Shown here one piece after another: positions 14,995 to 18,663 of a DNA stretch of 64,000 nucleotides. Every line of letters starts with the position of its first letter. The first letter of the stretch is position 1. Source of the stretch: Armillaria gallica (lineage: Eukaryota > Basidiomycota > Agaricomycetes > Agaricales > Physalacriaceae); the NCBI GenBank assembly GCA_037576215.1, contig JBANDB010000010.1, forward strand, positions 1,054,001 through 1,118,000, written 5' to 3'. The notes under the pieces are model-generated. The model ran no database searches, had not been told where the DNA came from, and saw only the letters and a program-made list of their open reading frames with translations. The position numbers and the translations under genes were made by a program.

Positions 14995-17866
14995 TCATCG
15001 CTCGTCAATTTGCATATCGTCACGGCGTGACCCCGGCGACCCTGTTTCCAGAACAACTTTGGGGGCAACGGAGCTCATATGGTTGAAGTCACTCTCTCCA
15101 GTTCGATATATGCGCCGGATCTCACTAGCATGATCACCAGCTTCTTCGTAAGCCAGGCTGTACTGCTCTAAGCCATTGATGCAGTTGATTGCCTCTTGCC
15201 GTCCTAGACGTGCGAGAAGGGTTCCAGCTTGGATACAGCTGACGTGCATCACCGCTGGGTCGAGTCGCTAAGCAATGAAATTCGAGTCAGTCGACCGAAG
15301 AACTACAATGACCGTTTACGTACCAGGTACTGGTTGCTCGTCAATACTGCTGCCTGTAGATACGGTGAGTGACGAAATTCGATAGGTGGTGACTCACGAA
15401 CAGACGACGTACCAGCGCAGATATCCGGCAAGCTCCATGCAGAGCTTCGTCCGCAATTTTTTGCATCACTGAATCCATTTGAGCAAATTCAGGTGTGAAC
15501 TTCGGATCGACACCAAGCCGTGTGGTTTCGTTTATTTCCTTTACCCCAACTTCATCTAGCGCGTTGAAAAGAATGATCCACATCACATGGTACTGCGCAT
15601 CGCTAGCACAGGAAGATACCGCCTTAGATGCGATCACGAAGGATGAGCAGTTTTAAAGAACAGATTGATTTGTCTACTCACGGTAACAAAGTCCCACGTC
15701 TGGTTCTCATTGCTGGGAACACCTACAGCCCGGAGATAGTCATCGCGCCACTCAGTAAGGGCTTTGAAAAACGTGTATAGGATGTCGAAGGGCAGTCCAT
15801 CGGCTTCTGTCGCAGGCTTCCAGAGTTGCCTAGACATCTGCCGTGCGGTTCGTGCAAGAGCGTGAGCTGCTCGATAGTATCCCTGTTGACAATTATTCAT
15901 GACGTCAGAAGGTGAGAGTTATCGGGTCACGGCACTAACCAGAAACTGGTGTGGAATTGCCTTAGTTAGCGTGTCGGATTCAGTGTGTGATTCGCGTACC
16001 TCTAATTGTTCTCTTGGCGAGGGAGTTGTTCCGTCATGACCGTCGGGATTAATGGGATCGACGGTATAGAAGTCAATGTCGTAATCGTCATCATCGAGGA
16101 TCGGTTTGTGACGGTAGTACAGCGAAGCGTATGCATCACATATACATGCCATCCACCAGGCAAAAATCATGGTTCCACGTTCTTCCGTGTCGCGATTAGC
16201 GGACGATATGACTGATTTGTGATTAATCTAGAGCAAATTGAAATACCGGATGTCTGGATGGAGTTGACACCTACCCCGAGATCCATAAGATGTCTCGTCG
16301 CTGAGGCCAGCCAGAACCCGTGATAGCCTGAAGAGTTCAATTAAGCCACGCCACGCATGCATGACAGGGTGAGTTACCTGTCTGGTCGTCAGGAGTTTCT
16401 GGAGAAAAAAAATTTTAGAAAGAAGCTTGGGAAATAAGGTTGGTAAACAGACTTACGACTTTGGAGTGGTTCGATCAACAGTCCAATCACTACATGGTCA
16501 TCCTTCGGCATACGATGTACCTTTAGAGCTTCAGCAAGCTCGCGGGTCCGTAGGATGAGGGTCCTCGCCAAGGCGCTGAGGTTTCCATTACGTCGACGAT
16601 CGGCGACGAGTAAGGGATGCTCTGAGAATTTGGCGCCCCACGAAATGACAGTGGCCACTAAGGCAGGATGCAAATGCTTGGTAGCCTTTGCCGCATGGGA
16701 TGGAAGCAATCGTAGACTGTTACGAAACTGCTCGGGATTAAGCAGGGGCAGCCGAGTGTGGACGATCTGAAAAAAAACTTCCACGAGGTCGAGAGCGAAC
16801 CTGTCAAGTTACAAGGGCATACAGTTAGGGATGCAATAGACAGTGAGAGAAAGACTGCGGATAGTAGTCAGCAAATAACAGTAGGATTGTAAAAAAGAAA
16901 CGGACAAACCGAAAAAGAGAGGTATTTCTCATGCATACAAAGGGATCAGGAGTGTATGAAAACTACGCACTCAACTCTGAAGGCTTCTTCTTCGAGCTTT
17001 GACGCTTGTTCTCCCCAGAGGAAATAAGGCGAAACTCTGATTTGCGTAAAGGATGTCGGATCACTGATTTTACGATATTGAGGTTACCAAATGAAAAGTT
17101 ACGCGAATAGCGTTACCCACTGACTTTCCGATTTCCGGCGGTGAGAACAGATATGCTAGGACCTCACGCGTAGACGAGCTCATAGTCACAGGTGGATAGA
17201 AACTGTATCTGTAAGTGCTCGACAATGGCATATGACCGGGGGAACCGTTCTCTATGGAAGGAGAACCACTGAATGGATAATTAATCAGCAAGCCCGAGTA
17301 CGGACACAACGAAGCAAAGACATACTTCTTGAAAGGGTTAGGAGACGGTGGACTAAGCAACCATGATCAGCGCAATTGCATATAGAAGACAGACAGAGAG
17401 CATGGGTGGTAGCAATCGGAATCGCCGTGGGTCCACGTCAACGAGTGCAATGAATGGCGCAACGTACCTGGAATTGGCAGATGATAATTTCCGTCGCCCG
17501 GGCGCAGATGTTCGCTTCTTCTCGCTGGTGGCTTGCTGGACGAAATGGCTGAGAAAAAGTGGGAATGAGGGTGATGTTTCAAGCATATCGACGAGGCAGA
17601 TGGACTGACGTGCAAGGGTAGTTCTTGGAGACACAGTGCTGGAGGCATCACTTGAATGTGATGGCAATATAGAAAGAGAACAATACGCACTTGACACTAA
17701 AACCAAAAGGTCAATGATGGAACAGAAGAAAAGCTGTAGGACACACCTTCTCCTGGCCCGGCAACCGATGACACTTGACTTTCCTCGCTCTACAAGCATC
17801 GCAGGCCGTGTTTTGTTTCCTTGGTGGAGGTAGAGTCTTCGCAAGCTCGTGAATCTGATTTTGCAT
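14995..17866 (-). CDS. Zn2Cys6 fungal transcription factor
   Basis: Starts at ATG 17866. The DNA-binding cluster is assembled from three exons: 17747-17866 (40 codons, ending CHRLPGQEK), a 6-nt microexon 17691-17696 (Cys-Gln) and 17610-17638. The spacing is perfect: C22-x2-C25-x6-C32-x8-C41-x2-C44-x6-C51, followed by HFVQQATSEKKR. Exon 17468-17548 continues in phase. Further exons carry the fungal-specific regulatory domain, with VEVFFQIVHTRLPLLNPEQF, TVISWGAKFSEHP, then GFWLASATRHLMDLGIN and MIFAWWMACICDAYASLYYR. The C-terminal part is helical and the gene stops at 14995-14997. It should bind CGG-type sites in the nucleus, but the target genes are not evident. It is divergent from Tom22 with 309 bases between starts. 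Several internal 3' exons were placed only by reading frame and homology of pattern. Confidence 0.87.
17691..17696 (-). other. 6-nt microexon supplying the fourth zinc-ligand cysteine
   Basis: On the minus strand TGTCAA lies between TTTTAG and GTGCGT. The upstream intron (17697-17746, 50 nt) and downstream intron (17639-17690, 52 nt) are both of normal size. It encodes C41-Q42. Without it the cluster has only five cysteines, yet the frame stays open. No alternative single intron yields a cysteine at the needed position. Confidence 0.75.
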
Positions 17867-18175
17867 CGAAGGGGAAGGTAGCACGATGCCTGGACGTTAC
17901 AAGGTGGAATCTGTAAGCTCAGCTATGTGCTGGACGACGAACGACGGCGAACGACGGATACCTGACTGTATAGAGCTGGTCGATGGCTCCGACGGCATTG
18001 GGCTGTCTGCCTGCATAGTACCGCGATAAGGGGCGAGCAAGGGGATGGAACAACAAGATCTAGAGGGCAAGGTACTTTATATGAACGCCGATTCAGGAAG
18101 GGGACCAAATAAGGCCAAGCCACCCTGAGGAATCAGCCCGGCTCCGAATTTTTTCTCAGCAACATACCGTCAGCC
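17867..18175. promoter_or_regulatory. Bidirectional promoter region, Zn2Cys6 factor / Tom22
   Basis: 309 bases between two divergent start codons. It contains a repeated CGAACGACGG-like unit around 17935-17958. I see no convincing TATA box for either gene. An upstream non-coding exon of the regulator could lie here. Confidence 0.4.
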
Positions 18176-18663
18176 ATGGTCAAGGTTGAAATTGTCGATG
18201 ACAAGGAGTCCAACTCTCCCTATGCCTCCTCCTCATCCTCGCGTAACTCGTCGACAGAGTCGCTTTCTTCTGTCTCCTCAGAATTGTCGGCTGATGAGAC
18301 CTTTTTCGACCGTATCGCTGCCCTCGTAGACATCGTACCCCCAACTGCCCGCCATAGCATCTCTTCGCGCGTCTCAAAAACTGCTTCCTTTGTCAAGAAG
18401 AGCGGGAAATTCTTCGGAAACATTGTGTGGGTCGTCACGACGTCTGCGCTCCTCGTCGCTCTCCCCTTGGCGCTGAGTTTGGAAGACGAGGCAAAAATTG
18501 TAGCTCAAGAAAAGGAAATGTTGGAGCAACAACAGGGTGCTCAGCAGGTCAGCTCTTTTTCCCGTCATTCTTGCTGTGTCTTATCCTGTCTTTGCTCCAG
18601 ATGATATCTCCAATGTATCCACAAACCAACCAACCAAAACCACTGGTCCCTCCCGGATTTTAG
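18176..18663 (+). CDS. Tom22, mitochondrial import receptor subunit
   Basis: Two exons (18176-18547, 18601-18663) give 144 residues, normal for fungal Tom22. The first half is acidic and serine-rich (MVKVEIVDDKE, then a Ser run), the cytosolic receptor part. The conserved segment follows: ETFFDRIAALVDIVPPTAR, then SFVKKSGKFFGN, leading into one membrane span WVVTTSALLVALPLALSL. After it comes DEAKIVAQEKEMLEQQQGAQQ and a short proline-rich end. Tom22 is the central receptor and organiser of the outer-membrane TOM complex, tail-anchored in that membrane. The gene is convergent with the complex I gene downstream, and both products are mitochondrial. Confidence 0.93.

What the first reader, a model, noticed from the sequence alone, without database searches (positions are those of the whole stretch)
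17639..17746. A 6-nt microexon carries one zinc ligand of a Zn2Cys6 regulator
The sequence shows TGTCAA between TTTTAG and GTGCGT, with flanking introns of 50 and 52 nt. Only with it does the cluster have six cysteines at exact spacing (x2, x6, x8, x2, x6). Established knowledge: loss of one ligand cysteine abolishes Zn2Cys6 DNA binding. Inference: skipping is frame-neutral (two codons) and would yield a full-length protein without DNA binding, so this could be a natural splice switch.
Basis: partly seen in the sequence, partly recalled or inferred. Interest (0 to 1): 0.75.

Follow-up and report, generated by a model that had tools for sequence, protein, structure and literature searches.

The report
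Conserved six-base exon in fungal regulator
A six-base exon in a mushroom gene-regulator gene supplies one of the cysteines that hold its DNA-binding zinc cluster together; it looks real and old, and there is no sign so far that it works as a switch, so it is above all a trap for gene-prediction software.

Summary
On the minus strand, exon 2 (17889-17747), a 50-nt intron, TGTCAA (17696-17691), a 52-nt intron and exon 4 (17638-17610) give C-x2-C-x6-C-x8-C-x2-C-x6-C; the six bases supply Cys4. They belong to a 17-exon, 647-codon hand model from an Armillaria-like fungus, with a second 6-nt exon at 15945-15940. The exon is old: 17 of 120 listed homologous models (five orders) lack exactly its two residues, and unspliced reading frames from other fungi show AG|TGYCAR|GT at the expected place in 18 clear cases of 20 long enough. 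The proposed splice switch is not supported: 13 of 13 contiguous jgi/lgn proteins, most simply read from spliced RNA, include Cys-Gln; none skips it. Skip-form models also tend to lack the other 6-nt exon (9 of 17 against 1 of 69 complete models), as a gene-caller fault would. Best reading: a constitutive microexon, in kind already known; a microexon in another zinc-cluster gene, Trichoderma Xlr2, is published. No RNA of this species was examined, so rare or conditional skipping is not excluded.

The parts
14995..18016 (-). Gene of a Zn2Cys6 regulator, hand model of 17 exons, 647 codons
   Evidence: homologs; Pfam Zn_clus and Fungal_trans
17747..17889 (-). Exon 2, Cys1 to Cys3 (CDACRARKVKCHRLPGQEK)
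17697..17746 (-). Intron 2, 50 nt, GTGTGT...TTTTAG
17691..17696 (-). Microexon (exon 3) TGTCAA, Cys-Gln, fourth zinc ligand
   Evidence: comparative
17639..17690 (-). Intron 3, 52 nt, GTGCGT...CCTCCAG; no YTNAY branch-like site
17610..17638 (-). Exon 4, 29 nt, Cys5 and Cys6 (HCVSKNYPC)
15940..15945 (-). Second 6-nt exon (exon 13) TTTCTG, Phe-Leu

Best explanation
The six bases are a genuine microexon of an intron-dense regulator gene and are spliced in constitutively. Two short introns (50 and 52 nt) sit six bases apart in the linker of the Zn2Cys6 cluster. Each is recognised as a unit (intron definition), so that exon size does not matter, and they are probably removed one after the other because splicing factors can hardly occupy both ends of a 6-nt exon at once. 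The product has Cys67, aligned with Gal4 Cys28, and thus a complete cluster. The arrangement probably predates the split of at least five orders of Agaricomycetes. Shown: structure, spacing, comparative conservation, inclusion in sequences that look spliced. Inferred: constitutive inclusion in this species, intron definition, order of removal, DNA binding.
For: Exact cysteine spacing and canonical introns. Cys-x at the exact place in 69 of 120 listed homologs. 17 of 120 lack exactly the two residues, in five orders. Genomic read-through ORFs decode to AG|TGYCAR|GT in 19 of 24, 18 of them clear, against 4.2% of shuffled segments. All 13 contiguous jgi/lgn proteins include Cys-Gln. Skip-form models also lack the second 6-nt exon in 9 of 17 cases against 1 of 69 (Fisher p = 5e-7).
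Against: No RNA of this species seen. The 13 proteins are taken as spliced RNA from their continuity, not from library labels; database clusters at 90% identity would hide a skip form beside an inclusion form. An exact two-residue loss could also come from a caller using TGYCAG as an acceptor where only the upstream intron exists, so single models do not prove both introns. 2 of the 17 skip models (P0015, P0050) keep the other short exons. Intron 3 lacks a YTNAY branch-like site. The skip form still passes Pfam's Zn_clus cut-off (25.6 bits against 21).
Confidence: 0.84

Rival explanations
1. Regulated splice switch: under some condition exon 2 is joined to exon 4, giving a full-length protein without Cys4 that cannot bind DNA and may compete with the complete form.
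For: Skipping is frame-neutral. A zinc-cluster microexon with condition-dependent inclusion is published for Trichoderma Xlr2 (PMC11121469). 17 of 120 database models have exactly the skip form, two of them with nothing else missing among the exons I checked.
Against: 0 skip forms beside 13 inclusion forms among contiguous jgi/lgn proteins. Association of skip models with loss of the other 6-nt exon. In the Xlr2 paper itself no reads linked exons 1 and 3.
Confidence: 0.07
2. The gene is controlled at this place, if at all, by intron retention: unspliced intron 2 or 3, or intron 8 further on, cuts the protein short.
For: Intron 2 read through meets a stop. Intron 3 lacks a YTNAY site. P0121, P0122 and P0123 stop in intron 8, and P0204 begins there, on a contig of the same stated length (3812) as P0122.
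Against: The search favoured ORFs of 73-231 residues, so truncated forms are over-represented. Partial retention may be only unfinished pre-mRNA. Nothing shows regulation.
Confidence: 0.12
3. The exon call is wrong: another donor or acceptor supplies the residue, or the cluster has no fourth cysteine here.
For: 7 of 120 models have two residues without Cys at this place.
Against: The second residue is Q in 6 of those 7, and the end of intron 3 reads Q before HC in 8 of 8 in-frame genomic read-through ORFs, so a wrong acceptor explains them. No second AG|TGY NNN|GTNNGT lies in the 108 nt. Cys at the exact place in 69 of 120 models.
Confidence: 0.03

Closest known systems
Trichoderma virens Xlr2 microexon (PMC11121469; abstract, introduction, results 2.1-2.5, section 3.5 and passages seen)
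   Same: A microexon interrupts a Zn2Cys6 cluster, encodes cluster cysteines and was missed by annotation.
   Different: 20 nt, encodes two cysteines (PCRRCE), other boundaries, an ascomycete gene; reported glucose-dependent. Here 6 nt, one cysteine, no sign of regulation. Whether the genes are orthologs was not tested.
6-bp exons in Phanerochaete chrysosporium P450 genes (PMC1184071, passages)
   Same: A shortest exon of 6 bp among small introns in an agaricomycete.
   Different: Enzyme genes; not a zinc ligand; no comparison across orders in the passages seen.
Gal4 DNA-binding domain (PDB 1d66)
   Same: Six cysteines align; the microexon cysteine falls on Gal4 Cys28.
   Different: x8 between Cys3 and Cys4 where Gal4 has x6. 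That the shared ligands of Gal4 are Cys11 and Cys28 is recalled; the passages of PMC7614390 say only that two cysteines are shared.

Membership tests
Zn2Cys6 (Gal4-type) fungal regulator | Six cysteines with family spacing | tested here: met
   x2-x6-x8-x2-x6 with the microexon; Zn_clus 33.4 bits with it, 25.6 without, cut-off 21; Gal4 alignment
Zn2Cys6 (Gal4-type) fungal regulator | Fungal_trans middle region | tested here: met
   PF04082, residues 200-456, 37.7 bits
Zn2Cys6 (Gal4-type) fungal regulator | Zinc-dependent DNA binding | not testable with these tools
   needs protein
Microexon (about 3-30 nt, between spliceosomal introns) | Internal exon with canonical introns on both sides | tested here: met
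   read-through ORFs of other species
Microexon (about 3-30 nt, between spliceosomal introns) | Present in mRNA of this species | not testable with these tools
   no RNA of this species on hand; 13 of 13 spliced-looking homologs include it
Switch-like microexon (Xlr2 type) | Inclusion depends on condition | not testable with these tools
   no expression data
Switch-like microexon (Xlr2 type) | An isoform without the microexon exists | tested here: inconclusive
   0 skip forms beside 13 inclusion forms; 17 of 120 gene models have the skip form but with marks of caller error
Switch-like microexon (Xlr2 type) | Same size and boundaries within the cluster | tested here: not met
   Xlr2: 20 nt encoding PCRRCE; here 6 nt encoding CQ, phase 0 on both sides

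The most novel reading that the evidence does not exclude
Skipping of this 6-nt exon is regulated in some tissue or on some carbon source and yields a full-length form of the regulator that cannot bind DNA: a two-codon dominant-negative switch kept across the Agaricomycetes.
Probability: 0.06. Interest if true: 0.78.

Novelty: new member of a known kind. Interest (0 to 1): 0.4.

Why it matters
A zinc ligand of a transcription factor appears to have been carried on a 6-nt exon since before at least five mushroom orders separated, which means that these cells splice such exons reliably. In practice it matters for annotation: 51 of the 120 listed homologous models do not have the fourth cysteine at its exact place, so in this family a missing zinc-cluster annotation should not be read as loss of DNA binding, and constructs made from such models would probably encode a damaged DNA-binding domain.

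Tried and rejected
DNA of relatives: a viral-contig scan with the protein found no relative; metagenome scans are capped at 0 and genome contigs holds bacteria and archaea, so I did not scan them. Orthologous DNA was therefore read only indirectly, through ORFs that run into introns.

Paralogs in the same genome: the protein search showed no second copy, only weak short matches elsewhere (which scores only the best candidates). Five other Zn2Cys6 loci (L017-L021), of the 54 matches, have Cys4 in one open stretch with Cys3; so the microexon is not general to the family in this genome. The other loci were not read.

Identity with known cellulase regulators (Roc1, DsAce3): passages seen (PMC9746306, PMC12997857), no sequence to compare; left open. 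NCBIfam gave no family.

Out-of-frame read-through ORFs: 13 of 16 long enough had a decoding motif somewhere, but shuffles did so at 14.8% and some of the motifs lie outside the intron; not used. The first classification script used a wrong expression and is replaced. A looser pattern gives 10 of 17 against 1 of 69 for loss of the second microexon; I use the 9 of 17. In one search the tests for exons 10 and 16 do not discriminate: many complete models also fail them (exon 10 not matched in 31 of 69).

Literature searches: 'microexon' with fungi (61 papers, 25 listed), with basidiomycete (9), with S. pombe (10), with Zn2Cys6 (0); 'micro-exon' with Basidiomycota and intron (2). The rows listed (splicing in Armillaria; Gal4 cysteines; short exons) held nothing specific. 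The microexon mentions in PMC3990503 and PMC4014442 are read-mapping settings (passages). This microexon was not found in print in these searches.

Full report
WHAT IS THERE. The finding lies in a minus-strand gene at 18016-14995. A hand model has 17 exons and 647 codons; its introns are GT-AG, 13 of 16 beginning GTNNGT. Exon 2 ends ...CHRLPGQEK; a 50-nt intron follows, then TGTCAA (17696-17691, Cys-Gln), a 52-nt intron, and exon 4, HCVSKNYPCT. With the six bases the cluster is C-x2-C-x6-C-x8-C-x2-C-x6-C. The simulated chance of such an exon in a 108-mer is 0.0155% to 0.13% by composition. The gene has another 6-nt exon, TTTCTG (15945-15940), and exons of 21, 27, 29 and 30 nt.

WHAT THE PROTEIN IS. 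Pfam gives Zn_clus (33.4 bits; 25.6 without the two residues, cut-off 21) and Fungal_trans (37.7 bits). No second copy was seen in the genome. The microexon cysteine aligns with Gal4 Cys28 (PDB 1d66). That two Gal4 cysteines are shared by both metals is stated in PMC7614390 (passages); that they are Cys11 and Cys28 is from memory.

CONSERVATION FROM PROTEIN MODELS. Of 120 listed homologs (251 found, 120 shown), 69 have Cys-x at the exact spacing (66 CQ, 3 CA), 17 lack exactly two residues, 7 have two residues without Cys, 7 have another length, 13 lack a recognisable next exon and 7 a recognisable cluster start. An exact two-residue gap most simply means introns on both sides of those codons. 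A caller could also produce it from a gene with the upstream intron alone, by using TGYCAG as the acceptor; in the window the codon is CAA, so that does not apply here. The 17 come from Agaricales, Boletales, Polyporales, Hymenochaetales and Russulales (the orders of Armillaria, Serpula, Sparassis, Rickenella and Russula checked, the rest recalled).

CONSERVATION FROM GENOMIC READING FRAMES. A search with 132 N-terminal residues returned short ORFs that run into introns. Such a translation betrays the DNA: AG|TGYCAR|GT must read CQV, V-S/P-G/S or S-V/A-K/R, by frame. Of 24 ORFs with an in-frame exon-2 end and read-through, 19 show one of these 12-26 codons later, against 4.2% of shuffled segments. 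Of the five others, four end at or before residue 18 (P0137, P0143, P0148, P0154), and P0144, 23 residues long, does not decode. P0131 among the 19 is doubtful: its expected place reads VPD. That leaves 18 clear of 20 long enough. P0259 and P0260 decode by eye. Several clear cases resemble named models: P0139, P0140, P0146 and P0149 share CHRLPGHDK with the Serpula model P0050, and P0135, P0138 and P0142 share NIACDACR and RQRKVKCHQLPGQ with Russulales models, so both introns are seen at the DNA level in genes of those types. The pattern admits only Cys-Gln codons and cannot by itself show that other residues never occur. Many of these ORFs also have an intron after CDACR that the window's gene lacks.

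INCLUSION OR SKIPPING. Thirteen proteins from jgi or lgn contigs carry the cluster without interruption: P0016, P0018, P0026, P0035, P0052, P0096, P0121, P0122, P0123, P0125, P0178, P0179, P0181. They read across intron sites, so they most simply come from spliced RNA; library types are not shown, and spliced gene prediction or loss of introns in those species is not excluded. All 13 have Cys-Gln. In one search no fragment with the in-frame exon-2 end continues directly with HC, as a skip form would. I left out P0129 (ena, CVHC), whose kinship and introns are unclear. The database is clustered at 90% identity, so a skip form could be hidden behind an inclusion form.

WHY THE SKIP MODELS LOOK LIKE ERRORS. 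Skip models lack the second 6-nt exon in 9 of 17 cases against 1 of 69 complete models (Fisher p = 5e-7), and P0001 lacks exons 3, 10, 13 and 16 together. Against this, P0015 and P0050 lack only the microexon among the short exons I tested, and the tests on exons 10 and 16 do not discriminate. The seven models with two residues and no Cys are explained by a wrong acceptor inside intron 3: Q stands second in six of them, and the end of intron 3 reads Q before HC in 8 of 8 in-frame genomic read-throughs.

MECHANISM. Both introns are about as short as the others of the gene (47 to 170 nt). That suits recognition of each intron as a unit, so that a 6-nt exon needs no special factor; as its two ends can hardly be bound at once, removal is probably sequential. 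This is inference. Intron 3, like intron 11, has no YTNAY branch-like site, which would if anything favour retention; intron 2 read through meets a stop.

PRIOR ART. Xlr2 of Trichoderma virens has a 20-nt microexon encoding PCRRCE, two cluster cysteines, reported as glucose-dependent (PMC11121469: abstract, introduction, results 2.1-2.5, section 3.5 and passages seen). [quoted passage not shown] A paper on Phanerochaete P450 genes reports exons down to 6 bp (PMC1184071, passages). The kind is therefore known; this member, one ligand cysteine on six bases with wide conservation, was not found in the searches.

VERDICT. Observation confirmed; microexon real and old, probably constitutive; switch unsupported but not excluded.

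Noticed in passing
15940-15945 (minus strand): Second 6-nt exon (TTTCTG, Phe-Leu) in the same gene. Spliced-looking proteins P0179 and P0181 appear to read into the intron before it.
   Followed up: partly
Intron 8, 16970-16801; proteins P0121, P0122, P0123, P0198, P0204: Homologs from jgi contigs stop or begin in the intron at this position, between the DNA-binding and middle regions; P0122 and P0204 name a contig of the same length, 3812. Possible recurrent intron retention, but the searches favour short ORFs.
   Followed up: partly
17747-17889: Many relatives have an intron after CDACR inside the cluster that this gene lacks.
   Followed up: no
18176-18547 (plus strand): Divergently placed neighbour whose first exon matches Tom22 (PF04281, 132.6 bits).
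   Followed up: no
P0088 (46 member sequences): A Suillus model reads DKRQHC without Cys4; probably a wrong acceptor, but a true loss of the cysteine was not excluded at the DNA level.
   Followed up: no
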